Shown piece by piece: positions 11,627 through 61,769 of a stretch of 64,000 bases of DNA. The DNA is from Catellatospora paridis (GTDB lineage Bacteria; Actinomycetota; Actinomycetes; Mycobacteriales; Micromonosporaceae): positions 124,001-188,000 of the forward strand of contig NZ_WBZD01000021.1 of assembly GCF_009720365.1 (NCBI RefSeq), written 5' to 3'. Under the pieces are notes generated by a model. The model made no database searches. It was not told the DNA's origin and saw only the letters and a program-made list of their open reading frames with translations. Within the stretch, counting starts at the first letter, position 1. Each line of letters opens with the position of its first letter. The position numbers were made by a program, and so were the translations under genes.

Positions 11627-11715
11627 GCGCCCATCACCCCAGCCCTGCTCCGGCCGATAAGAGCCGTTTACCCCGAAACCCGCTCCCCCACGCCCAGCCC
11701 CGCCTCCCGTTTGTC

Positions 11716-11780
11716 ATCGACATTGGCCTATCCAGATGACTTCGATCGCGAATTATTCATCTGGATAGGCCAGCGTCTAT
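11716..11780. repeat. Dispersed palindrome family A, copy 1
   Basis: Inverted arms (11719-11739 and 11757-11777, 19 of 21 positions complementary) around a 17-base loop. The minus-strand reading matches copies at 38972-39036 and 60685-60749, including a conserved GATC in the loop. It begins 41 bases beyond the metG stop, so it may also terminate metG transcription. Relative to the other two copies it is inverted. Confidence 0.85.
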
Positions 11781-11820
11781 GGAAAACGGGGCGGGGGCGC
11801 GGCGCGGGCGTGGGTGTCCG

Positions 11821-16086: not shown

Positions 16087-16135
16087 AAGAAGGGCACCTT
16101 CTACAACGCATAGCGATGTGAAGGTGCCCTTCCTT
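16087..16135. terminator. AAGGGCACCTTC hairpin (repeat-like) behind GH81
   Basis: A 12-bp core stem (AAGGGCACCTTC / GAAGGTGCCCTT) with an 18-base loop containing ACGCATAGCG lies seven bases beyond the GH81 stop. Very similar hairpins are, as I recall, common in Micromonosporaceae genomes, so this is probably both a terminator and a member of a dispersed family. Confidence 0.65.
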
Positions 16136-16142
16136 GTATCAA

Positions 16143-19100
16143 TTAGGGGGCGTATACCTCGAATTCGAAGAGGGAGTAGCCCCAGGCGGTGGCGCGGGTG
16201 GTGCCATTGACGCGGACGTAGCGGCCCGAGCCGGTCAGGCCGGTGAGGTCGTCGACGCCGCCGTCACCGCCGGTGACGGACCGGATGGTGGTCCAGGTGT
16301 TGCCGTCGGGCGAGGTCTGGATCTGGTACGCCGACCCGTAGGCCGCCTCCCAGACCAGCCGCACCCGGCTGATGGAGTAGGTCTGGCCCAGGTCGACCCG
16401 GATCCACTGCGGGTCCGAGAAGGCGCTGGCCCAGCGGGTGGTGGTGGCGTTGCCGTCCACCGCCGCCGAACCGGGGTAACCCGCCGCCTCGGTGCTGGAC
16501 ACCAGGGTCGGCTTGTTCAGAGCCACGTTGACCGAGGGCTGGCTCGTGGTGCCGGTGTAGGGCAGCACGAGCCGGGACTGGTTGCCGATGCCCAGGGTGC
16601 TCGGCCCGCTGCCGATGGCACTCCAGACCTCGACCCGCACCGAGCCGTTGGCCAGGTTGGCGAACGATCCGGTGGTGGTCTTCACGCCGAACGCCTGGGT
16701 GTAGTGCTCGTATCCGGCGACCGGGTCGGTGGGGAAGTAGTTGTACGTCTCCACCCGGTCGAAGCTGCCGTTGCCGGTGAAGTCGTACGACACCCGGACC
16801 TGGGTGGCGTTGCCGACACCGGTGCCCGCGTCGAGGAACATGTCGAAGTTCGTCGCGCCGCCGTTGTGCGTGGCGTTCAGGCCGGTCGCGTTGAACACCT
16901 GGGCGCTGTGCGGGTTGCCGTCCCAGTTGCCGTTGGCCGCGGCCACGGTGACCGAGCCGGCCGCGCTCTGGGTGCCGGGCAGGCCGCCGCCGGATTGCAG
17001 GTAGCGGGTGGCGGCGAAGCTGCCGGGCGGGTTCGGTGAGGTGGACGGCGACGGCGAGGCCGGAGGAGACGGCGACGCGGGCGGCGACGAGGGCGGGTTG
17101 GACGGCGGGTTCGAGGGCGGGTTGGACGGCGTCGGGTTGCCGCCGCCGCAGGCGTTGCCGCCGGTCCAGGTGAAGGCGCCGGAGGTGACCGTCTTGCAGG
17201 CCGGCACGCTCAGCGTGGTGCCGTTGGAGAAGGTCACCGTGATCGCCGCGTTGCTGATGTTGGACGCGACGTAGGTGCGCGCGCCCGCCTTGTTGAACAC
17301 CTTGGCCAGCGGGTGGTTGGCGGTGATCGAGGTGTCCACGTTGCCCAGCGCGGCCAGGTTGCGGATCCAGTGGTAGGTGTGCGCCTTGGACTCGCCCTCC
17401 TCGGAGGTGAACCCGCTGTTGGCGTTGAAGTTGTTCAGCGCCGCGGTGCCGTTGCCCAGGGCCTGGAACTCCCAGAGGATGTCCTGCCAGACCGTGGGCG
17501 GGCCGCCGTTGTTGGTGACCAGCTCGTTGTAGTTGGTCGTCACGTAGGCGGGGTTGTCGCCGAGGTAGAAGTGGCCGCCGGTGATGGGCAGCATGTTGAT
17601 GCCCTGGATCATCTCCGGCTCGCCGGAGAACCACGTCGCGTACGCGCCGCCGTCGCCCCAGACCATGCCGACCGTGTTGTGCCCGAAGGCGGCCGGGAAG
17701 TTCTGGTTGCGCACGTCGAACCAGTACTCGGCGATGGCCGCGGACTGCGTGGTGTAGATGAAGATGCCGGCGTCGCGCACCGCGGCGTTGCCGGTCGCCT
17801 GGCCCCACTGGATCAGGGCGTTGGCGAAGTTCATGCCCTCGGACGAGGACTCCTGGTTGTTGCCCGCGCCGAACGCGCCGTGCCCGGCCGCCCAGTCGTG
17901 ACCGGCGAAGATGTCGAAGTCACGCAGGTACGGGAAGCGGGTGTCGGTGCGGTCGTAGTTGTTGGCGTCGCGGATCAGCAGGTCCACCATGCCGCCGTAC
18001 TGGCTGTTGGTGGCCCAGGTCTTGTCGAACTTGGCCAGCGTCGCCGCGGCGGCCACGAAGTAGCCGTAGTGGAAGTGGTGGTCGTTGAGTTCCAGGTCGG
18101 ACCCGTAGGAGGCCGGGTAGCCGAGCAGGGTGCCCCAGGCGCTGTTGTAGTAGAAGACCCGGCTGGTCTTGCCCGCCGACGCGGTGAACCAGTCGTTGAG
18201 CCGGGTGCGGATGGTGCTCAGCGCGGTGTCGCGGATCGAGGTCAGGTTGAGCTGGTCGGCGATCTCGGCGATGCGCGCGGCGCGGCCCAGGCCCTTGCCC
18301 GTCCAGTAGGTGTCGTCGCCGCGGAAGTCGGCCGGGTTGCCCGCCACCGCGTTGAGGAAGTTGGTGATCGTGGTGAGGTCGCCGCCGGAGCTGTCCGCGA
18401 CCGCCGGGATCTCGGGCAGCACGCCGGTGTACTTCATCGAGGTCGTGAACGAGCCGATGCCGGTGAGGATCTTCATCTGGCCGCGCGCGCTGGTGTACGT
18501 GTTCGCCAGCGGCGTCGCGCCGGTCAGGCTGTTCCACTGGTGCGGGTACAGCGCCGCGACGGTGGCCGTCTGCGAGCCCTGCCGCGCCGTGGTCAGGTAC
18601 GTGTACGTGGTGTTCAGCGTGCTGGCGGCCTGGTTGTAGCTGTACGACACCCGGGTGCCGGTGACGTGCGCGTGCGCGTACTGGCCGTAGGTGTTGGCGA
18701 GCGCGACCCGGTCGGCGCCGGCGGGCAGCACCGCGACCGAGAAGAAGCCCTGGCCGTTGAGGGTCGAGCTGATCGACGTGCCGCTGACCGTCCAGGTGGA
18801 GCCGGTCGGGGCGTACGCGACGTAGTCGCGCCCGTTGACGTTGAAGCCGATCTGGCCGCCGCTGTTGGACCACACGGTCGGCGTGCCCGCCGTGGTGATC
18901 TGCGCGTTGCCGCCGGTCACCTGGAAGTACGCGAACGGCAGGCCGTGGCCGATGGTGGCCTTCATGGTCCGCGCGCCGTCACTCCAGTACGGCGTGACGG
19001 TCCAGTCGCTCCACCCGTCGACCTTGCTGTCGGGGGAGTTCAGGCCGGCCACGCCGACGAGCATGTCCTGCACGTAGGGGTAGTGGAACTCGCCGACCCC

Positions 19101-19538
19101 GGTCGCGCTGCCGCTGATCGCGGGGGTGGTGTTGTAGGAGAACCCGAGCCCGCCCGCGAGCGTGTCGTAGGAGATCGGGTGGGCGTGCAGCGGCTCGCTG
19201 TAGCTGCAGTCGAACTTCTTGAACAGCAGCGACGACCACCAGTCGTTGGTGGGCACGCCGCCGGCGGGGGCGTTGGCGGTGACGTACTGACGCGGGTTGG
19301 TCGACAGCGATCCGCAGCCGGCGGGCACCGAGCGGCCCGCGGGCAGGCTGTCGAGGTAGCTGCCGGCGCCGACGGTGCCCGCCTGGGCGGTCTGCGCGAC
19401 GGCGATGCCGAACAGGGCTGCGGCCAGGACGGCGACCGAGCCGAGGACGAGGGCGCGGTGGCGCGCCCAGGACTGACGTCGGCGACCCGCGCGGCGCGGT
19501 TCGCCGTCGGGGGTCACGGACCGGATGGACGGTTCCAT
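16143..19538 (-). CDS. Secreted multidomain GH81 endo-beta-1,3-glucanase
   Basis: 1131 residues from the ATG at 19538, chosen because GGAGG lies eight bases upstream; an ATG ten codons earlier lacks such a site. Order: a signal/anchor helix (about 30-53); GH81 catalytic region (about 60-730) with DWWSSLLFKKFD, HFHYGYF and the catalytic stretch HDWAAGHGAFGAGNNQESSSEG (about 545-570); a beta-sandwich tail; a Pro/Ser linker (about 803-838); a module beginning RYLQSGGGLPGTQS (about 843-993) that resembles modules on other beta-glucanases; and a C-terminal F5/8-type CBM32 (about 1000-1131; AVDGNATTTRWAS). It hydrolyses beta-1,3-glucans of fungal or algal walls outside the cell. Two LacI-type operators and a promoter lie upstream. 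Confidence 0.9.
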   Translation of the reverse strand: MEPSIRSVTPDGEPRRAGRRRQSWARHRALVLGSVAVLAAALFGIAVAQTAQAGTVGAGSYLDSLPAGRSVPAGCGSLSTNPRQYVTANAPAGGVPTNDWWSSLLFKKFDCSYSEPLHAHPISYDTLAGGLGFSYNTTPAISGSATGVGEFHYPYVQDMLVGVAGLNSPDSKVDGWSDWTVTPYWSDGARTMKATIGHGLPFAYFQVTGGNAQITTAGTPTVWSNSGGQIGFNVNGRDYVAYAPTGSTWTVSGTSISSTLNGQGFFSVAVLPAGADRVALANTYGQYAHAHVTGTRVSYSYNQAASTLNTTYTYLTTARQGSQTATVAALYPHQWNSLTGATPLANTYTSARGQMKILTGIGSFTTSMKYTGVLPEIPAVADSSGGDLTTITNFLNAVAGNPADFRGDDTYWTGKGLGRAARIAEIADQLNLTSIRDTALSTIRTRLNDWFTASAGKTSRVFYYNSAWGTLLGYPASYGSDLELNDHHFHYGYFVAAAATLAKFDKTWATNSQYGGMVDLLIRDANNYDRTDTRFPYLRDFDIFAGHDWAAGHGAFGAGNNQESSSEGMNFANALIQWGQATGNAAVRDAGIFIYTTQSAAIAEYWFDVRNQNFPAAFGHNTVGMVWGDGGAYATWFSGEPEMIQGINMLPITGGHFYLGDNPAYVTTNYNELVTNNGGPPTVWQDILWEFQALGNGTAALNNFNANSGFTSEEGESKAHTYHWIRNLAALGNVDTSITANHPLAKVFNKAGARTYVASNISNAAITVTFSNGTTLSVPACKTVTSGAFTWTGGNACGGGNPTPSNPPSNPPSNPPSSPPASPSPPASPSPSTSPNPPGSFAATRYLQSGGGLPGTQSAAGSVTVAAANGNWDGNPHSAQVFNATGLNATHNGGATNFDMFLDAGTGVGNATQVRVSYDFTGNGSFDRVETYNYFPTDPVAGYEHYTQAFGVKTTTGSFANLANGSVRVEVWSAIGSGPSTLGIGNQSRLVLPYTGTTSQPSVNVALNKPTLVSSTEAAGYPGSAAVDGNATTTRWASAFSDPQWIRVDLGQTYSISRVRLVWEAAYGSAYQIQTSPDGNTWTTIRSVTGGDGGVDDLTGLTGSGRYVRVNGTTRATAWGYSLFEFEVYAP

Positions 19539-19658: not shown

Positions 19659-19742
19659 TGTTTCGGGGCCATGGCATCTGAGTAAATCCCGGGACGTGGA
19701 CACAGCGTGACGAAGGCGGGACGGCATAACGTGACAACGGCC

Positions 19743-19762
19743 CTGTGAGAGCGCTCTCACAG
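19743..19762. promoter_or_regulatory. LacI-type operator O2, perfect 20-bp palindrome
   Basis: CTGTGAGAGCGCTCTCACAG is a perfect palindrome with the same core as O1. The centres of O1 and O2 are 137 bp apart, close to 13 helical turns, which suits looping. It also lies 24 bases beyond the dienelactone hydrolase stop and could fold as a terminator. Confidence 0.65.
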
Positions 19763-19785
19763 AGCCGTTGTCAATGGCTCGTCGG

Positions 19786-20520
19786 TCAGTGGCGGTGCCG
19801 GGTGGTGAAGGAGATGATCCGGTTCCAGGCGTCGGTGCAGGCGTCCTGCCACTGCTCGAACGAGCGGTCGAAGAACGAGTGCGGGGCGCCCTCGTACACA
19901 TGCATCTCGGGGCCGACGCCGGCCTCCTCCAGCTGTGCGGCGAACTTCTCGAACTCGCTGACCGGCGTCGAGTCCGCGCCCGCCACCAGCATCAGGATCG
20001 GCTTCTCCACCTCGTCGACGACGTCGGCGACCCGCGCCGGCTGGCCGTAGAAGCCGATCACCCCGGCCAGGTCGAGGTCGGAGGCGGCCAGCCGCCACGA
20101 CTGGCTGCCGCCGAAGCAGAACCCGATGGTGTACACCGACGCGTCCGGGTCGGATTCGGTCAGCACCGCCATCGCGGCCGCCGTGTCGGCGTACACGTGC
20201 GCGGGCGTGACCTGCGGCATGTGCTCCATGTAGGGGAAGCTCTCGTCGCGCTGGGACACCCCGGCGGTGCGGCCGAAGTAGTCGATGGCGATCGCCTCGT
20301 AGCCCGCCTCGGCCAGGCGCTGGGTGAGCCCGACGTAGAACGGGTGCAGGCCGCGCACGTCCGGCAGCACGACGATCTTCATGCCGTTCGGGGTCTGCGG
20401 GACCGCCCGGTACGCGGCGAGGGTGTTGCCGTCCTCGGCGTGCAGTTCGAGCGGGCCGTGCTCGGCCACCGCGCCCGCGTTCGGGGCCTTCGGGGCCTGG
20501 CTGTCGTCACTGTGGCACAT
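19786..20520 (-). CDS. Dienelactone hydrolase family protein
   Basis: 244 residues with an alpha/beta-hydrolase fold. The nucleophile motif is GFCFGGS (Cys, about residue 132), with the acid in AGADSTP and His in APHSFF, the Cys-Asp-His triad typical of dienelactone hydrolases. The family opens lactone rings or acts on related esters in the cytoplasm; the natural substrate here is unknown. Its start overlaps the end of the upstream AlkZ-related gene by 14 bases, so the two are likely co-transcribed. Confidence 0.88.
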   Translation of the reverse strand: MCHSDDSQAPKAPNAGAVAEHGPLELHAEDGNTLAAYRAVPQTPNGMKIVVLPDVRGLHPFYVGLTQRLAEAGYEAIAIDYFGRTAGVSQRDESFPYMEHMPQVTPAHVYADTAAAMAVLTESDPDASVYTIGFCFGGSQSWRLAASDLDLAGVIGFYGQPARVADVVDEVEKPILMLVAGADSTPVSEFEKFAAQLEEAGVGPEMHVYEGAPHSFFDRSFEQWQDACTDAWNRIISFTTRHRH

Positions 20521-22138: not shown

Positions 22139-23539
22139 GTGGACAGGGTTCTGGTCGAGAAGCGGGATGCGGGCGCCGTCTCGCCGGTCTACTCGCGGCC
22201 GGGCGTGCCGCGCCTGGTGGCCTGGGCGGCGCTCGCGGGAGCGGGCCTGACCGTGCTCGCCGTCGTGGCGATGATGCTGCGGCGGTTGCCGACGGGGTCG
22301 CGCCTGGCCGGATGGACCTATCCGTACGACCGCGCGGCCGGGGAGTGGCACGTGGTGTGGCCCGCCCTGGTGGTCGCGGCCGCCGTGCTCGGGCTGCTGT
22401 GGCTGTCGCGCCGGCTGCCCGGGCGCTTCGACGGGGCCGTGGTCGCGGGGTGGTTCCTCGCGGTGATCCCGCTCCAGTTGCTGCTGCGCCGGTACGCCCT
22501 GCCGTCGCTGGGTGACATCGTGGTCAGCGACCGCGCCAACTCGTTCCACTCCCCGTCGCAGCGCTGGGGCCTCGGCGAGTTCATGGGCGACTACATGGGC
22601 CTGGTCGAGCAGCTGCCGCCGCACGCGCGCACCAACATGCCCGGCAAGACCATGCTGTACTTCCTGCTCGACGCGCTCGGCCTCGGCCCGGCCGCGATGG
22701 GCGTCGCCGTGCTGGCCGTGGCGAACCTGTCCGCCGTGCTGCTGTGGCTCATCGTGCGCGACCTGACCGGCGACCGCCGGATCGCGCTGTACACCCTGGT
22801 CCTGGGGCTGTTCCTGCCCGGCGCGCTGTACTTCGTCCCGGTGCTCAACGCCGTCTCCCCGGTGCCGATCCTGCTCGCGCTGTGGCTGCACGTGCGCTTC
22901 CTGAAGACCGGCCGGGCCGGGTACGCGCTCGGCCTGGGCGGCGCGCTCTACCTGACCGTCTTCTTCGAGGCGCTGCCGCTGGTGCTGGGCATCGTGTTCG
23001 CGGCGCTGCTCGGCGTCGCGCTGCGGCAGCGCACGATGTCCTGGCCGGACGCGCTGCGCCTGCTCGGGCTCACGCTGGCCGGGTTCGCCGGCTGCTACGC
23101 GGCGATGCGGGGACTGTTCGGCTACGACCTGTTCGACAACTTCGGGTACGTGCTGGCCGACGCCAACGACTTCAACTCCCGCTGGCGGCCGTACGGGATG
23201 TGGGTGACCCGCAACCTGTGGTACCTGGCGCTGGCCGGCGGGGTCGCGTCTTGCGTGATGCTCGCAGCGGCTGCCGTCGACGCGGTGCGCCACCGGTCGG
23301 CGCACCCGGCCGCGGTGCTGACCCTGTCCGGGATCGCGGTGCTGGTGGTGCTCGACCTGTGGGGGATCAACCGCGGCGAGACGGTCCGACTGTGGATCTT
23401 CCTGGCGGTGTATCTGCAGGTCGGCGCGGCCTGGCTGTGCGCCCGCACCGAGCGCTTCTGGCCCGCCGCCGTCCTCGTCTCCGCCGCCGTCCTCCAGGCC
23501 GGCATCGGCTCCGCCATGATCGGCTTCGTCCGCATCTGA
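22139..23539 (+). CDS. Polytopic membrane protein (GT-C-like topology)
   Basis: 466 residues from a GTG with GGAGAGG upstream. At least ten hydrophobic segments are visible, with an extracytoplasmic loop after the third (about residues 125-170) containing HSPSQRWGLGEFMGDYMGL and PPHARTNMPGKTM. The topology resembles GT-C (dolichol- or polyprenyl-phosphate sugar) transferases, but no clear DxD is seen in the first loop; the nearest acidic pattern is LGDIVVSDRANS. I do not assign an enzyme. It is monocistronic, bracketed by a terminator and a palindrome. Confidence 0.7.
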   Translation: MDRVLVEKRDAGAVSPVYSRPGVPRLVAWAALAGAGLTVLAVVAMMLRRLPTGSRLAGWTYPYDRAAGEWHVVWPALVVAAAVLGLLWLSRRLPGRFDGAVVAGWFLAVIPLQLLLRRYALPSLGDIVVSDRANSFHSPSQRWGLGEFMGDYMGLVEQLPPHARTNMPGKTMLYFLLDALGLGPAAMGVAVLAVANLSAVLLWLIVRDLTGDRRIALYTLVLGLFLPGALYFVPVLNAVSPVPILLALWLHVRFLKTGRAGYALGLGGALYLTVFFEALPLVLGIVFAALLGVALRQRTMSWPDALRLLGLTLAGFAGCYAAMRGLFGYDLFDNFGYVLADANDFNSRWRPYGMWVTRNLWYLALAGGVASCVMLAAAAVDAVRHRSAHPAAVLTLSGIAVLVVLDLWGINRGETVRLWIFLAVYLQVGAAWLCARTERFWPAAVLVSAAVLQAGIGSAMIGFVRI

Positions 23540-23567
23540 CCCGACCGCCACCTCGTCCCACCTGCGA

Positions 23568-23626
23568 CAACTCTTAAAGACTTGCGGCCTAAGCGGCATT
23601 CTGAGGCCGCCAGTCTTCAAGAGTTG
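23568..23626. repeat. Single long palindrome after the membrane protein gene
   Basis: 23-base arms beginning CAACTCTTAAAGACT (two mismatches) flank a 13-base loop, 28 bases after the stop. No U-run follows. The build resembles families A and B but no second copy is seen in the window. Confidence 0.65.
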
Positions 23627-23659
23627 CCGCGAGTGGGCGGGTCCGATCGCGAGGGGCGA

Positions 23660-28792: not shown

Positions 28793-28983
28793 CACCCACA
28801 GACCGCACGGACGAGCGTCTACGCCGAACTCGGGGAGAGCGCGCTCTTCGGCGTGCCCGACCGTGCCCGCAAGAAGGCACCTCCCACGGACCGCGGGGGC
28901 AGAAGGACCCCGGCGCGCCGCCTCTCACGCGGCGCGCCGGGGCTGCCCACCACCGTAGTCCGCCACCCCGAAAGGAGAGAACA

Positions 28984-38335: not shown

Positions 38336-38609
38336 GCGGATCCTCCTTCATAGACCAAGCTCGACCGTTCAACGAGCTGATCGAGAAGGCCGAGGTATCG
38401 GCAACCCGACACCGCCGGGCAGACGGGTTCCGTGCGGCGAGGCTGACGGTCGCGATCGGACGATGTGCGGTGGCGTCGGCTCCCGCTCCGGGCCGGAGCG
38501 GGGACTGGCTCGGGAGGGTGGCCTGCGGATACGTGTCGCGGATGGGGCGGTGCGGGTCTGTCCGGCCGTAGGTTCGCCCATCATCGGCAGGGGCAGGAGG
38601 GCAGAGGTC

Positions 38610-38909
38610 ATGTGGAGACTCTGGTACGCACTGGGAGTGGTGCTGGTCGGGTTCGGGCTGCTGATCGGGGCGGTGGCCGTGTACGGGTACACGCAGCTCG
38701 ACGGGGAGCTGGCGCACGCCGAGCAGAAGCTGTCCGAGGCGGAGGGGGAGGAGGACCTCAGGTTCCGGCAGGTGCAGGTCGCCGACATCGAGGACGGCAA
38801 GAGCAACAACGTCCTGTTCGCCGTCGGCAGCCTGGTGCCGGTCGCAGGCGGCGTGGGCCTCGTCGCACTCGGCCACCGCGGACGCAGGTCACGCCGCGTC
38901 CCGGCCTGA
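38610..38909 (+). CDS. Small two-helix membrane protein
   Basis: 99 residues with a strong AGGAGG site nine bases upstream of the ATG. Two hydrophobic helices (about 5-25 and 68-88) flank an acidic, charged loop (ELAHAEQKLSEAEGEEDLRF). The end is basic. No family recognised. It converges on tex, with a family A palindrome between them. Confidence 0.65.
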   Translation: MWRLWYALGVVLVGFGLLIGAVAVYGYTQLDGELAHAEQKLSEAEGEEDLRFRQVQVADIEDGKSNNVLFAVGSLVPVAGGVGLVALGHRGRRSRRVPA

Positions 38910-38971
38910 TCCGCCCGTGCCCGGCGACCGGGTCCCGGCGGCGGCCGAGCCGCCACAGCAGCCCGTCTTGC

Positions 38972-39036
38972 ATAGACATTGGCCTATCTGGATGAGTATT
39001 TTGCGATCAAACTCAACCAGATAGGCCAGTGTCTAT
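38972..39036. repeat. Dispersed palindrome family A, copy 2
   Basis: 24-base arms (ATAGACATTGGCCTATCTGG onward; 22 of 24 complementary) around a 17-base loop, between the small membrane gene and the converging tex gene. Same family as 11716-11780 and 60685-60749. Confidence 0.88.
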
Positions 39037-39064
39037 AGAAAGAGCGATCGGTGCGCCCCCAGGC

Positions 39065-41488
<2,424 letters not shown>

Positions 41489-49834: not shown

Positions 49835-51190
49835 ATGCGAAGAGGAGTCAGGACGCTGCTGGCGGTCGCCGCCTCGGCCCTGGCCGTCGTGGGAGGACTG
49901 GTGGTCGCTTCGCCACCTGCCATGGCGGCGACGCTCACCGAGGTCACCAACTTCGGAACCAACCCCAGCAACCTGCGCATGCACCTGTACGTGCCCGACA
50001 ACATCGGCGCCCGGCCCGCGGTCGTGGTCGCCGTGCACTACTGCACCGGGACCGGCCCGGCCTTCTACTCGGGCACGCAGTTCGCGCAGCTGGCCGACCA
50101 GTACAAGTTCATCGTGATCTACCCGTCGGCGACCCGGAGCGGGAGCTGCTTCGACGTGTCGTCGTCGGCCTCGCTCACCCACAACGGCGGCAGCGACTCG
50201 CTCGGCATCGTCTCGATGGTGCGGTGGGTGCTGAGCAACCGCGACGGCGACGCCAACCGCGTCTACGCCACCGGCGCCTCGTCCGGCGGCATGATGACCA
50301 ACGTCCTGCTGGGGGCGTATCCGGACGTCTTCAAGGCGGGCTCGTCCTTCATGGGCGTGCCGTTCGGGTGCTTCGCCACCACCGATGGGTCGATGTGGAA
50401 CAGCACCTGCGCCAACGGCCAGCTGATCAAGACAGCCCAGCAGTGGGGCGACCAGGTCCGCGCCGCCTACCCCGGTTACAGCGGCCCGCGGCCACGCATG
50501 CAGCTGTTCCACGGCACCGACGACGCGACGCTGCGCTACCCGAACTTCGGCGAGGCGATCAAGCAGTGGACCAACGTGCACGGCCTGAGCCAGACCCCGA
50601 CGTTCACCGACACACCCCAGTCCGGCTGGACCCGGACCCGCTACGGCGGCTCGGGCACGGGCGTCGCGGTCGAGGGCGTCAGCCTGGCCGGCGTCGGCCA
50701 CAACCTGCCGCTGAGCGGCCAGGCCCTGATGGCGATCCAGTTCTTCGGCCTCACCTCCGCGCCGCCGAGCCCGTCGACCCCGCCGTCGCCCAGCACGCCC
50801 CCGTCACCTAGCGCCCCGCCCTCGCCCAGCACCCCGCCGTCGCCGAGCGTGCCGCCGAGCCCGCAGCCGCAGGGCGCGTGCCGGATCGGGTACACGGTCA
50901 ACGCGTGGAACACCGGCCTGACCGCGAACATCACCATCACCAACACCGGATCGTCCACGGTCAACGGGTGGGCGCTGGCGTTCACCCTGCCCGGCGGGCA
51001 GGCGATCACCTCCGGCTGGAACGCGACGTACTCGCCGACCAGCGGTGCGGTGACCGCCCGGAACCTGAACTACAACGGCACCCTCGCGCCCGGCGCGAGC
51101 ACCACCATCGGGTTCAACGCCAACCACACCGGCAACACCGGCAAGCCACCGTCGTTCACCCTGAACGGCAGCACCTGCACCATCGCGTGA
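49835..51190 (+). CDS. Secreted CE1/PHB-depolymerase-type esterase with CBM2
   Basis: 451 residues with GGGAGGAG upstream of the ATG. A signal peptide ends after AMA (about 29). The catalytic domain (about 32-305) has VAVHYCTGTG, nucleophile GASSGGM (about 147-153), FHGTDDATLRYPN and the His in GVGHNLP, as in CE1 acetyl-xylan/feruloyl esterases. A Pro/Ser linker follows, then CBM2 (about 348-451, CRIGYTVNAWNTGLTANITI). It should de-esterify plant cell-wall polymers outside the cell while bound to cellulose or xylan. Controlled by the adjacent LacI protein, by inference. Confidence 0.9.
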   Translation: MRRGVRTLLAVAASALAVVGGLVVASPPAMAATLTEVTNFGTNPSNLRMHLYVPDNIGARPAVVVAVHYCTGTGPAFYSGTQFAQLADQYKFIVIYPSATRSGSCFDVSSSASLTHNGGSDSLGIVSMVRWVLSNRDGDANRVYATGASSGGMMTNVLLGAYPDVFKAGSSFMGVPFGCFATTDGSMWNSTCANGQLIKTAQQWGDQVRAAYPGYSGPRPRMQLFHGTDDATLRYPNFGEAIKQWTNVHGLSQTPTFTDTPQSGWTRTRYGGSGTGVAVEGVSLAGVGHNLPLSGQALMAIQFFGLTSAPPSPSTPPSPSTPPSPSAPPSPSTPPSPSVPPSPQPQGACRIGYTVNAWNTGLTANITITNTGSSTVNGWALAFTLPGGQAITSGWNATYSPTSGAVTARNLNYNGTLAPGASTTIGFNANHTGNTGKPPSFTLNGSTCTIA

Positions 51191-51200
51191 GCTGATGACC

Positions 51201-51242
51201 GCCGCCTCCGATCGTGCCCCGAAAGGCACGAGCGGAGGCGGC
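51201..51242 (+). terminator. Hairpin terminator of the esterase gene
   Basis: Nested stems GCCGCCTCCG/CGGAGGCGGC and CGTGCC/GGCACG follow ten bases after the stop codon. Confidence 0.7.
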
Positions 51243-51324
51243 GGCCGTCAGGCCGGATCCGCTGCGGCTGGCCGGTCCCGGCCGGGCGACGGCAGCTGCC
51301 GACGGCGGTACCGCAGACCCGCGG

Positions 51325-58665: not shown

Positions 58666-58693
58666 GCCTCCATCATGCCGCCGCCCCGTCCCC

Positions 58694-58772
58694 AAGATCT
58701 GCGAACCTGCCTGGCACCTGTGCGTATCTTGGCCGCGCTTTCGCACAGGTGCCAGGCAAGTCGGTCGATCTT
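58694..58772. repeat. Dispersed palindrome family B, copy 2
   Basis: 31-base arms (26 of 31 complementary) around a 17-base loop; the arm AAGATCGACCGACTTGCC onward matches the copy at 21409-21487. It lies between the Spo0M-like gene start and the flavin reductase stop (22 bases away). Confidence 0.85.
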
Positions 58773-58794
58773 GGAGGAGGGGCGGGGCGGTCCG

Positions 58795-59433
58795 TCAGGC
58801 GGGGGTGAGGCGGCGGTCGTGGGGCATCTGCCAGCCTTCGGCGAGCCGGGAAGGGTGCACGTTGTCGCCGCCGCCGAAGAACTCGCAGAACTTCATGATC
58901 AGCGGGTCCCAGGCGACCGGGTCGACGTAGTGGGTGCCGGGGATGATCAGGTCCTGCTCGACGTGGGCGCGGCGCACCTCGGCGACGTACGCGGTGGCGA
59001 ACGGCTTCGGGTCGCCGATCGGGAACGCACCGCTGATCTCGCATTCCAGCTGGATCGGGCACTGCGCCACCCGGTCCGGCGCGACCAGCTCCGACGGCTG
59101 CGGGCTCAGCCCAGCGGCCGCGAACTTGTCGGGCACGTGCCGGTAGCCCATGGCGAGCTTGCCCGGCGACGGCTGCGGCGAGCCGGTGGTCAGCGCCAAC
59201 CGGTCCACCGCGTCGACCAGCGTCGACGGCACCAGGTTGAGCACGCACTCGCCCTCGCGGCGCAGGTTGGCGGCCGTCTGCGCGCTGTCGCCCAGGCCGA
59301 GCACGCAGGAGCTGCCCAGCCACCAGGCCGACGACATCGGGGCGAGGTTGGTCGTGCCGTCCGGGTTGCGCGAGCTGATGATCACTACGGGGGTGCCGAA
59401 GTACAGCACCTTGAGGTCGAGGGTCTGGTGCAC
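58795..59433 (-). CDS. Flavin reductase-like domain protein
   Basis: 212 residues: LYFGTPVVIISSRNPDGTTNLAPMSSAWWLG is the flavin reductase-like opening, with ANLRREGECVLNLV further on. The fold binds FMN or FAD and reduces flavin or modifies a substrate such as an ester. It shares a strand with the DUF2277 gene upstream (105-bp gap). Confidence 0.82.
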   Translation of the reverse strand: MHQTLDLKVLYFGTPVVIISSRNPDGTTNLAPMSSAWWLGSSCVLGLGDSAQTAANLRREGECVLNLVPSTLVDAVDRLALTTGSPQPSPGKLAMGYRHVPDKFAAAGLSPQPSELVAPDRVAQCPIQLECEISGAFPIGDPKPFATAYVAEVRRAHVEQDLIIPGTHYVDPVAWDPLIMKFCEFFGGGDNVHPSRLAEGWQMPHDRRLTPA

Positions 59434-59779: not shown

Positions 59780-60685
59780 GTGTCCACTGCCGTGCCGATG
59801 ACCGAGAGCCGACCCGCCGCCGTACGCGTGCTGGCCGTCCTGCTCGCCATGACCGCCCTGGCCACGGCTTCGGTCGAGTGGCTGAACTGGTACTACGCCA
59901 CCGACGGCGGCTACCCGCTGTTCGTGCGCACCGCCTGGGCGCTGCTGCGCTCGCTGTTGTTCCTGGTGCTGATCTTCCACCTGTGGCGGGGCCGGCACGG
60001 CGCCGCGCCGTTCGGGCTGATCCTGGCGGTGACGACGCTGTTCGCGCTGGCCCGGCTGGTCGTGCCGAAGCAGGGCGCACCGGCCGTGCCCGGGATCATC
60101 GGGTTCGGCGTGGTGGCGGTGCTGTGCCTGATCGTGGTGCTGCTGCTGTATCGGTCGGCGAGCGTGCAGGAGTTCCTGAGCCGGCCGAAGCTGCGCTGGT
60201 GGATCAGCCGGGACGGGCTGACCCGCAAGCCGATGCCGAGCCGTCCGCAGGTGCCCGGCTGGGTGCTGACCACCCGGGTGGCTGTGTTCAGTTACAGCGC
60301 GCTGATGCTGGTCGCCTGCGTGGTCGCGGCGGGGCGGCTGCTCGACGGTGACGTCACCCTGCTGCCGCTGATCGTGGGCTGGTTCGTGTTCGCGCTGATG
60401 GTCAGCTACGTGGCGCTGTTCTTGAGCATCTTCCTGGTCAAGGGCAAGAGGTGGGCCCGGCTGCAGCTGGTGCTGCTGACATTGCTGGTACTGCTGGTGC
60501 ACCTACCGCTGTGCCGGCTGCTGCTCGGGGTGGACGGGCTGGTCCGAGACGGCGGCCCGCTGCTGGTGGCGGCGCTGCTCGCGCTGTGGGGCCTGTGGCG
60601 AGCGGGTCGCAACGGCCACTTCGTCCCCGCGGCCCAACGCTCCACCGCCCAGCCCGACCCGGCCGCGACGCACCCCACTCAGTAA
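59780..60685 (+). CDS. Polytopic membrane protein of unknown function
   Basis: 301 residues from a GTG (ATG 59798 is an in-frame option). About eight hydrophobic segments with a large basic loop (about 130-165) containing RPKLRWWISRDGLTRKP. No motif identifies it. It is divergent from the DUF2277 gene by only 34 bp. Its TAA overlaps the first base of a family A palindrome. Confidence 0.7.
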   Translation: MSTAVPMTESRPAAVRVLAVLLAMTALATASVEWLNWYYATDGGYPLFVRTAWALLRSLLFLVLIFHLWRGRHGAAPFGLILAVTTLFALARLVVPKQGAPAVPGIIGFGVVAVLCLIVVLLLYRSASVQEFLSRPKLRWWISRDGLTRKPMPSRPQVPGWVLTTRVAVFSYSALMLVACVVAAGRLLDGDVTLLPLIVGWFVFALMVSYVALFLSIFLVKGKRWARLQLVLLTLLVLLVHLPLCRLLLGVDGLVRDGGPLLVAALLALWGLWRAGRNGHFVPAAQRSTAQPDPAATHPTQ

Positions 60686-60749
60686 TAGACGTTGGCCTAT
60701 CTGGATGAGAATTTGTAGATCGAACTCAGCCGGATAGGCCAACGTCTGT
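60685..60749. repeat. Dispersed palindrome family A, copy 3
   Basis: 24-base arms (21 of 24 complementary) around a 17-base loop, starting on the last base of the upstream stop codon and ending 54 bases from the converging GlxA-type gene. Same family as 11716-11780 and 38972-39036. Confidence 0.88.
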
Positions 60750-60803: not shown

Positions 60804-61769
60804 TCAGGTGGTGGTGCGGAAGGTGCGGCGGTACGCGAGCGGGGCGGTGCCGACCGTGGCGCGCAGGTGCTGGCGCAGCGAGACGGCGGTGCCGAAGCCG
60901 GCCTGGTCGGCGACCTGGTCGATGGCGAGGTCGGTGCTCTCCAGCAGGTGGCGGGCGTGCTCGATGCGCTGGCGGGTGAGCCACCGGCCCGGTGACAGCC
61001 CGGTCTCCTCCCGGAACCGCCGGGTGAACGTGCGTACGCTCATGCGCGCGTGGCGGGCCAGTTGGTCCAGGTCGAGGGGTTCGCCGAGGCGGGTCAGCAC
61101 CCATTCGCGGGTCGCCGCGGTGGAGGCGTCGCCGGGGGCGGGCAGCGGGCGTTCGATGAACTGGGACTGGCCGCCGTCGCGCCAGGGGGCCACGACGCAG
61201 CGGCGGGCGGCCCGGTTGGCGACCTCGCTGCCGTGGTCGCGGCGGATCACGTGCAGGCACAGGTCGAGCCCGGCGGCGACCCCGGCCGAGGTGAGCACCT
61301 GCCCGTCGTCGATGAACAGCACGTCGGCGTCGAGTGCGACCTGCGGGAACCTGCCGCGGAAGTCTTCGGCGTAGGCCCAGTGGGTGGCGGCGGGGCGCTC
61401 GTCGAGCAGACCGGCGGCGGCCAGCACGTACGCTCCGGTGCAGATGGACATGATCCGTTTGCCGGCGGCGTGGGCGGTGCGGAGGGCGGCCACGGCCGCG
61501 ACGGTGGTGGGGGCGGCCAGGCGCTCGCGGTGGATGCCGGGCACGATCACGGTGTCGGCCCAGTCGAGCAGGTCGAGGCTGTGGTCGGGCTGCACGGAGA
61601 AGCCGGCGCTGGCGCGGATCGGGCCGCCGTCGGCGGTGCAGACGCGGATCTCGTAGAGCCGGTGGCCGGCGCTGTCGGTGGCGCAGCCGAACACCTGGCT
61701 CGGGATGCCGAGGTCGAGTGCCATGACTCCGTCGAGGGCAAGCACGGCGACACGGTGGCGAGCGGTCAT
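60804..61769 (-). CDS. GlxA-family transcriptional regulator (DJ-1 + AraC)
   Basis: 321 residues. An N-terminal DJ-1/PfpI-like domain (about 5-170; VLALDGVMALDLGIPSQVF, the Cys region SICTGAYVLAAAGLL, VLTSAGVAAGLDL) is fused to an AraC helix-turn-helix (about 225-318; LARHARMSVRTFTRRFREETGLSPGRWL, IDQVADQAGFGTAVSLRQHLR). Divergent from the MFS gene, and may control it through the shared 62-bp gap. Confidence 0.9.
   Translation of the reverse strand: MTARHRVAVLALDGVMALDLGIPSQVFGCATDSAGHRLYEIRVCTADGGPIRASAGFSVQPDHSLDLLDWADTVIVPGIHRERLAAPTTVAAVAALRTAHAAGKRIMSICTGAYVLAAAGLLDERPAATHWAYAEDFRGRFPQVALDADVLFIDDGQVLTSAGVAAGLDLCLHVIRRDHGSEVANRAARRCVVAPWRDGGQSQFIERPLPAPGDASTAATREWVLTRLGEPLDLDQLARHARMSVRTFTRRFREETGLSPGRWLTRQRIEHARHLLESTDLAIDQVADQAGFGTAVSLRQHLRATVGTAPLAYRRTFRTTT

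What the first reader, a model, noticed from the sequence alone, without database searches (positions are those of the whole stretch)
11716..11780. Dispersed 65-bp palindrome family A: three copies with a constant 17-nt loop at gene ends
The palindrome occurs at 11716-11780, 38972-39036 and 60685-60749. All three have long near-perfect arms (ATAGACRTTGGCCTATCYGGATGA type) and exactly 17 unpaired bases with a shared GATC. Sequence conservation in the loop is not expected for ordinary terminators. Every copy abuts a stop codon: 41 bases past metG, between the 38.9-kb gene and tex, and on the stop codon of the 59.8-kb gene. The 11.7-kb copy is inverted, so both orientations occur. Possible explanations are a REP-like element family moved by an unseen transposase, a conserved RNA element, or a protein-binding site.
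Basis: partly seen in the sequence, partly recalled or inferred. Interest (0 to 1): 0.75.

Follow-up and report, generated by a model that had tools for sequence, protein, structure and literature searches.

The report
Swappable hairpin repeats ending bacterial genes
The three palindromes belong to a large family of 65-base hairpins, repeated scores of times in soil bacteria of the genus Catellatospora; they sit just past gene ends, probably helping to end or protect messenger RNAs, and related species can carry a different hairpin family at the same gene end.

Summary
Copies span the genus Catellatospora (15 to >=86 per genome); 49 of 50 non-genus relatives have none, one has a weak hit. The unit is a sharp 65 bp: 24-bp arms with compensatory changes and a 17-nt loop keeping GATC in 60 of 61 copies. 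Of 62 copies examined, 37 lie between convergent genes, 25 between tandem genes, none in divergent gaps or inside genes. It is one of at least seven repeated long-hairpin families in the genus. Orthologous gene ends can carry different families: past tex, A in 6 genomes, B in 3, D in 2. Best reading: two-way 3'-end hairpins (U-tract-less terminator or mRNA-end stop) drawn from repeat families that can replace one another. Termination itself is inferred. RAYT, resident-transposon, uptake-signal, phage and plasmid explanations found no support. How copies spread is unknown.

The parts
11716..11780 (+). family A hairpin, copy 1, 40 nt past the stop of the minus-strand metG; outer pairing extends to 11706-11790
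   Evidence: orientation by loop GATC
38972..39036 (-). family A hairpin, copy 2, between convergent 38610-38909(+) and tex 39065-41488(-)
   Evidence: orientation by loop GATC
60685..60749 (-). family A hairpin, copy 3, begins on the last base of the stop codon of 59828-60685(+); convergent with 60804-61724(-)
   Evidence: orientation by loop GATC
58681..58785 (.). family B long hairpin (44-nt arms, 17-nt loop), 10 nt past the stop of 58795-59433(-)
23557..23637 (.). family G long hairpin, 17 nt past the stop of 22139-23539(+)
16089..16132 (.). family C hairpin (GAAGGGCACCTTC type), tandem slot, about 10 nt past the stop of 16143-19538(-)
19732..19773 (.). long hairpin, unclassified, 13 nt past the stop of 19786-20520(-); similar hairpin at the orthologous place in G003
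51192..51251 (.). long hairpin, unclassified, 1 nt past the stop of 49922-51190(+); similar hairpin at the orthologous place in G003

Best explanation
Family A is a genus-restricted, REP-like dispersed repeat that works as a two-way 3'-end hairpin. When RNA polymerase passes the end of a gene from either side, the 65-nt palindrome in the RNA folds into a 24-bp stem with a structured 17-nt loop. That stem either ends transcription without a U tract (an I-shaped terminator) or marks and protects the 3' end left by Rho and exonuclease trimming. The palindrome lets one copy serve both genes of a convergent pair. The genus has several such families (A to G), and at a given gene end one family can take the place of another over evolution. 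Shown by calls: the copies, the fold prediction, covariation, genus restriction among the genomes searched, placement, and different families at some orthologous slots. Inferred: that the RNA is made, that the hairpin ends or protects it, and that one family replaced another by gain and loss. Not known: how copies spread.
For: Placement: of 62 own-genome copies, 37 convergent, 25 tandem, 0 divergent, 0 inside genes; against the slot mix of one 398-kb stretch of the same genome the binomial chance of 0 divergent is 4e-9 by slots and 1.5e-11 by bases. Of the 25 tandem copies, 23 lie within 77 nt of the upstream stop. Structure: 10 of 24 pairs have changes on both sides and the covariation score is 0.246 against 0.025-0.056 for slid pairings (32 copies chosen for diversity, out of the 77 distinct units and the own-genome copies); the edge is sharp, 95% Watson-Crick at the last pair and 21% one base further (61 copies). 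Samples (first 398 kb of contig C1 of G000; stretches around tex in the others): long hairpins in 16 of 43 (G000), 45 of 78 (G003), 54 of 87 (G008) and 25 of 39 (G009) convergent slots, and in 3 of 62, 5 of 110, 5 of 119 and 7 of 58 divergent slots; one mononucleotide shuffle of each slot gave 0 or 1 per class (threshold one point stricter, about 400 kb each). Exchange: tex slot A in 6, B in 3, D in 2 of 11 genomes (classed by eye); metG slot A in G000, F-type in G003 and G008; 23.6-kb slot G, G, B, E in G000, G003, G008, G009. Hairpins at orthologous 3' ends coincide beyond chance when all genes are pooled: 33 against 14.6 expected of 165 (G003-G008), 13 against 7.8 of 107 (G003-G009), 12 against 6.3 of 101 (G008-G009, p 0.0025, none of the 12 with the same named family), 12 against 5.2 of 56 and 7 against 3.3 of 33 (window with G003, G008), 5 against 2.8 of 28 (window with G009, p 0.07). 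In Streptomyces clavuligerus Term-seq, 353 of 535 highly structured 3' ends had fewer than three U in the 8 bases after the stem (passages of PMC8269248), so U-less 3' hairpins exist in a high-GC actinomycete.
Against: No transcript data were available. There is no U tract: 7 of 122 strand-ends have 3 or more T in the 8 bases after the unit, and the terminator scan of 38400-39400 finds none. The loop is longer than the 4-8 given as optimal for E. coli terminators (PMC8269248 passage) and keeps GATC in 60 of 61 copies, which plain terminators do not need. The pooled coincidence of slots counts a convergent hairpin once for each of its two genes and partly reflects conserved gene order. Stratified by slot type it is weak. 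In one search, convergent slots of at least 40 nt are near saturation and show no excess in any of three species pairs (G003-G008 7 shared against 7.5 expected of 12, p 1.0); tandem slots exceed chance in one of three pairs (G003-G008 4 against 1.3 of 28, p 0.0095), but those four are like hairpins kept in both species, not swaps. In one search (shorter gaps allowed), convergent G003-G008 is 7 against 4.5 of 20, p 0.034, and tandem is in excess in G003-G008 (p 0.047) and window-G003 (p 0.0002); the other seven of ten comparisons there are not significant. So exchange rests on individual slots, not on a stratified test. In G009, repeated-family hairpins also lie in 7 of 58 divergent slots. The sampled 398 kb of the own genome is poor in them (2 of 43 convergent slots). 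At the 60.7-kb slot I see no long hairpin in G003 and no named family in G008. Placement alone would also fit tolerated insertion.
Confidence: 0.62

Rival explanations
1. A mobile repeat in the strict sense: family A is a miniature element (REP, REPIN or MITE) moved in single-stranded or hairpin form by a transposase; gene ends are only where insertion does least harm.
For: Sharp 65-bp edge; at least 86 dispersed copies, genus-restricted, numbers very different between species; REPs elsewhere also lie mainly in convergent and unidirectional gaps (abstract and passages of PMC3733652); copy 3 sits where G003 has only about 40 nt between the two genes.
Against: No RAYT over the cut-off in 11 of 11 genus genomes; no Y1 transposase in G005, G007, G009, G010, which hold 58-137 pattern copies; no target-site duplication of 2-9 bases at the unit edges beyond the range of copy-swapped controls; each of the 100 listed arm matches (of 126) belongs, by eye, to a pair spaced by about 17 nt, so no longer element with these ends shows up; copies with near-identical cores share no more flank than others (0.634 against 0.646), so no sign of a recent burst.
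Confidence: 0.23
2. A DNA-level site: the palindrome is bound by a protein (gyrase, a nucleoid protein) or extrudes as a cruciform that absorbs supercoils between convergent genes.
For: Convergent bias; near-invariant GATC in the loop and near-invariant pairs outside the part fixed by the search pattern (C-G in 61 of 61 and A-T in 59 of 61); E. coli REPs as gyrase sites is recalled, not tested.
Against: Families with unrelated sequences fill the same slots; arm sequences change while pairing is kept, which fits a folded strand better than a double-strand recognition sequence; tandem copies hug the upstream stop.
Confidence: 0.1
3. Uptake-signal-like: a short motif kept for DNA uptake, whose inverted pairs were taken over as terminators, as in Neisseria and Pasteurellaceae.
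For: The closest precedent for terminators built from a repeated word (abstract and passages of PMC1852404).
Against: Uptake signals are about 9-11 nt and generally number 1,000 or more (PMC1852404 passages); here the 17-base arm has 63 forward and 63 reverse matches and the 100 listed all belong to pairs (by eye). A shorter unpaired word was not counted.
Confidence: 0.02
4. Ordinary unrelated intrinsic terminators that look alike by chance.
For: Placement at gene ends.
Against: A model of family A finds 86 matches, the cap, in each of 8 genus genomes and none in 49 of 50 non-genus relatives.
Confidence: 0.01

Closest known systems
REP / BIME / REPIN elements (GTAG- and CGTC-tagged, RAYT-associated)
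   Same: Dispersed extragenic palindromes, tens to hundreds of copies, mainly in convergent and unidirectional gaps, downstream of genes (PMC3733652 passages; here)
   Different: 65 bp instead of 20-40 bp; no unpaired terminal tag; no RAYT over cut-off in 11 genomes; several sequence-unrelated families found at the same orthologous slots
I-shaped or U-lacking terminators of high-GC actinomycetes (Streptomyces HS-U-lack 3' ends)
   Same: Stable long stem shortly past the stop codon, no U tract (PMC8269248 passages)
   Different: Belongs to a sequence family with a conserved loop and fixed spacing; no transcript ends tested here
Uptake-signal terminators of Neisseria and Pasteurellaceae
   Same: Hairpins at gene ends made of a repeated genus-specific sequence (PMC1852404 passages)
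   Different: Listed arms occur as pairs only; much longer unit; far fewer copies
MITEs / ERIC-type hairpins
   Same: Palindromic, non-coding, dispersed
   Different: No target-site duplication; no autonomous element with these ends seen in this genome

Membership tests
Classical REP/REPIN | 20-40 bp palindrome in high copy, extragenic | tested here: not met
   High copy and extragenic but the unit is 65 bp
Classical REP/REPIN | unpaired GTAG or CGTC tag at one end | tested here: not met
   Unit ends are paired (95% at the last pair), the next base outward pairs in 21%; CGTC occurs inside the paired arm
Classical REP/REPIN | RAYT transposase encoded in the genome | tested here: not met
   NF047646: 0 of 11 over cut-off, 3 weak matches below it; PF01797 in 6 of 11, absent from 4 copy-rich genomes
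Classical REP/REPIN | preference for convergent and unidirectional gaps | tested here: met
   37 convergent, 25 tandem, 0 divergent of 62
Intrinsic terminator | stable RNA hairpin just past the stop codon | tested here: met
   predicted MFE mean -41.3 kcal/mol for the unit over 61 copies, both strands; distances
Intrinsic terminator | U-rich tract after the stem | tested here: not met
   3 or more T of 8 in 7 of 122 strand-ends
Intrinsic terminator | transcript 3' ends at the hairpin | not testable with these tools
   no transcript data held
MITE | target-site duplication | tested here: not met
   2-9 bases at the unit edges, shifted outward by up to 12 on each side, 61 copies: no count above the range of 20 copy-swapped controls; the wider scan peaked inside the unit for 3-5 bases
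MITE | autonomous element with the same ends in the genome | tested here: inconclusive
   the 100 listed of 126 arm matches belong to close pairs (by eye); only the own genome looked at
Known Rfam RNA family | covariance-model match | tested here: not met
   no gathering match in the window; in 9 loci at E up to 1, a tRNA and three matches below gathering score

The most novel reading that the evidence does not exclude
Catellatospora carries several rival families of 'terminator parasites': self-spreading hairpins, moved by an unrecognised non-RAYT mechanism that reads the folded strand and its GATC loop, which survive by taking over the job of ending transcripts, so that the same gene end passes from one family to another between species.
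Probability: 0.25. Interest if true: 0.8.

Novelty: new variant of a known kind. Interest (0 to 1): 0.55.

Why it matters
Terminators are usually treated as structures that arise locally and need no shared sequence. Here many gene ends are stocked from repeated, genus-specific hairpin families, and some orthologous slots carry different families in different species. That ties three open questions together in one testable genus: how U-less hairpins end transcripts in high-GC bacteria, how repeats spread without a RAYT, and how a functional element can change its whole sequence while its position is kept. The families are also ready-made two-way terminator candidates for actinomycete genetics.

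Tried and rejected
RAYT or Y1-driven REP: no support. MITE with an autonomous partner: no partner seen, no target-site duplication. Uptake signal: against PMC1852404. Phage or plasmid carriage: no match in viral contigs to one exact pattern with 28 specified bases, none in plasmids by blastn with one 85-base copy. Known RNA family. Canonical U-tract terminator. Chance. Directional element: among 25 tandem copies the loop GATC points with the gene in 17 (my count), not a clear bias. A first look past tex read the wrong frame in several genomes and was redone. A second 400 kb of G003 and G008 was meant to add orthologous slots; still had only 61 G003-G008 slots of all three kinds.

Literature: the searches listed, by title and start of abstract, no paper on these families; the 10 papers shown of 9,633 do not contain the word Catellatospora. 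I saw passages only of PMC12306157, PMC12207403, PMC8269248, PMC3733652, PMC2267715 and PMC1852404. Searching for arm letters as text listed 20 of 237 papers, on unrelated subjects by title. So 'not in print' is claimed only for those searches of open-licence papers.

Limits of the counts: the 62 copies were gathered with the pattern GGCCTAT...ATAGGCC, so invariance of those 14 bases is by construction; they are a part of the 68 pattern matches and of at least 86 model matches. The further units were taken only if they had GGCC on both sides and at least 19 of 24 arm positions complementary, so the share of paired cells (94.8%) is raised by selection. Genes were called by a home-made codon-score script, judged by eye and by Pfam on nine proteins of which three had no match. 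Family labels A-G are mine, from single-linkage BLAST clusters of four or more; labels at the tex, metG, 23.6-kb and 60.7-kb slots were put on by eye. In some searches one of the 62 copies was dropped because its loop is one base shorter. The chance figures take their baseline from one 398-kb stretch.

Full report
What is there. The window is part of an 8.97-Mb genome (G000:C11:124001-188000). A near-consensus family A pattern, searched exactly in named genomes, gave six loci, all in Catellatospora vulcania and C. methionotrophica, from which I infer that the genus is Catellatospora. The pattern GGCCTAT, gap of 20-50, ATAGGCC has 68 matches in this genome against 2 for the reversed control. 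A covariance model built from 32 copies scores 86 matches here, 86 being the number scored per genome, so at least 86.

Range. Of 50 non-genus relatives 49 have none and one, G015, a single weak match. The exact pattern gives 1 to 137 per genus genome and, outside the genus, one match in one of 50 genomes. No match in viral contigs or plasmids.

Anatomy. Sixty-one own-genome copies of equal length show a sharp unit: Watson-Crick pairing is 95% at the outermost pair of the 65 bp and 21% one base further out, with weaker pairing (26-61%) in the next ten positions. In 32 copies from several species, 10 of 24 pairs have changes on both sides and the covariation score is 0.246 against 0.025-0.056 when partners are slid; the 94.8% of cells paired is raised by how copies were chosen. 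An example is the outer TAGAC/GTCTA becoming TCGAC/GTCGA in G004. In this genome the loop keeps GATC in 60 of 61 copies, and an inner stem of four or more pairs is possible in 35 of 61 loops against 9.8% of shuffled ones; in 31 G006 loops (of 113 copies), whose sequences differ, it is 14 of 31 against 10.3%. RNA of either strand folds at z -7.7 to -9.7 for the three window copies.

Placement. With a codon-score gene finder, 37 of 62 copies lie between convergent genes, 25 between tandem genes, none between divergent genes and none inside a gene, though six overlap a gene end by 1-4 bases. Against the slot mix in one 398-kb stretch of the same genome, 37 or more convergent has a chance of 1e-12 and no divergent 4e-9. 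In tandem slots 23 of 25 lie within 77 nt of the upstream stop. REPs in other bacteria show the same kind of preference (PMC3733652, abstract and passages), so placement alone does not separate function from tolerated insertion.

Not alone. In stretches taken from the start of contig C1 of G000 and from around tex in three other genomes, long hairpins fill 16 of 43, 45 of 78, 54 of 87 and 25 of 39 convergent slots in G000, G003, G008 and G009, but only 3 of 62, 5 of 110, 5 of 119 and 7 of 58 divergent ones. BLAST clustering gives seven recognisable repeated families, A to G, besides two small GC-rich clusters. Families B and C were counted by exact pattern: B 14 to 145 and C 1 to 192 per genus genome, both zero in all 50 non-genus relatives. 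The window itself holds A three times, B at 58681-58785, C at 16089-16132 and G at 23557-23637.

Different families at the same slot. Past tex, six genomes have A, three have B (there the next called gene is tandem, not convergent) and two have D. Past metG the own genome has A, G003 and G008 have F-type hairpins; past 22139-23539 it is G, G, B and E in G000, G003, G008 and G009. At 60.7 kb the own genome has A, G003 shows no long hairpin in about 40 nt, G008 no named family, and G009 has E. In 12 comparisons of an orthologous convergent slot with hairpins in both of two species, 3 have the same family, 7 differ in at least one named family, and 2 pair unclassified hairpins; slots recur between comparisons (my tally). 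Pooled over all genes, hairpins at orthologous 3' ends coincide more than expected in five of six comparisons at p below 0.02, the sixth at 0.07. This partly reflects conserved gene order and counts convergent hairpins twice. Split by slot type with gap filters, only tandem G003-G008 slots keep an excess (4 against 1.3, p 0.0095) and those four are like hairpins kept in both, not swaps; convergent slots are nearly full and cannot be tested. With looser gaps three of ten comparisons are significant.

How it most likely works. At several gene ends a hairpin is present in each species looked at while its sequence family differs; with the placement and the covarying arms this points to a role of the fold in RNA at the 3' end. 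There is no U tract. In Streptomyces clavuligerus 353 of 535 highly structured 3' ends have fewer than three U after the stem, which the authors relate to I-shaped terminators or to ends of Rho-dependent transcripts (PMC8269248, passages); among the species compared in another study, Streptomyces hairpins were the longest and most stable and its U tracts weakest (PMC12207403, passages). I therefore put two-way termination or 3'-end protection first, at 0.62. That the RNA is made and ends here is inferred.

What is not explained. The loop GATC and the fixed spacing ask for more than a stem. How copies multiply is open: no RAYT passes the cut-off, Y1 transposases do not track copy number, there is no target duplication, and copies with near-identical cores share no more flank than others. 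Differences in subfamily at one slot, CTGG-type arms in G000, G001, G003 and G007 and CTCATCGA-type arms in G004 and G006 past tex, would fit within-genome homogenisation or replacement.

Membership. It is placed like a U-less terminator and dispersed like a REP. It fails three defining REP features tested here (length, unpaired tag, RAYT) and one terminator feature (U tract), so I file it as a new variant of REP-like repeats, not as a member of either family.

Noticed in passing
G003:C1 (8.91 Mb of about 9.3): The first listed copies of families B and C lie at 0.89 and 0.94 Mb although the genome holds 74 and 110, and all 23 pattern copies of A lie between 1.13 and 7.60 Mb; dnaA is at 4.20 Mb. 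The chromosome regions farthest from dnaA seem poor in these repeats.
   Followed up: partly
G009 sample C2:2600001-3000000: Repeated-family hairpins also occur in 7 of 58 divergent slots there (B and E types in the list), unlike family A in the own genome.
   Followed up: no
window 58681-58785 and family B in the list: The family B loop often holds TATCTTG or its complement, a word repeated in the outer arm (GATCTTG) in the window copy, so an alternative pairing of loop with outer arm is possible.
   Followed up: no
family C, e.g. window 16089-16132: Each arm of family C (GAAGGGCACCTTC) is itself an inverted repeat and the loop often holds an inner stem in more than one paired form (AACGC/GCGTT, ATCGC/GCGAT), so a clover-like fold is possible.
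   Followed up: no
window 28908-28942: A GC-rich hairpin (CCCCGGCGCGCCGC-7-GCGGCGCGCCGGGG) with an identical counterpart in G003 and a near-identical one in G008; it lies over 80 nt from both called genes and may be a regulator site or RNA leader.
   Followed up: no
L105 just past tex in G006: Two long hairpins follow each other past tex in G006: family A and then TTACATCTTTTTTGATGTG...CACATCAAAAAAGATGTAA.
   Followed up: no
G003 and G008 divergent slot: A near-identical divergent-slot palindrome TTGTTGACATGTCACCAA is shared by both genomes; it looks like an operator or a pair of promoters.
   Followed up: no
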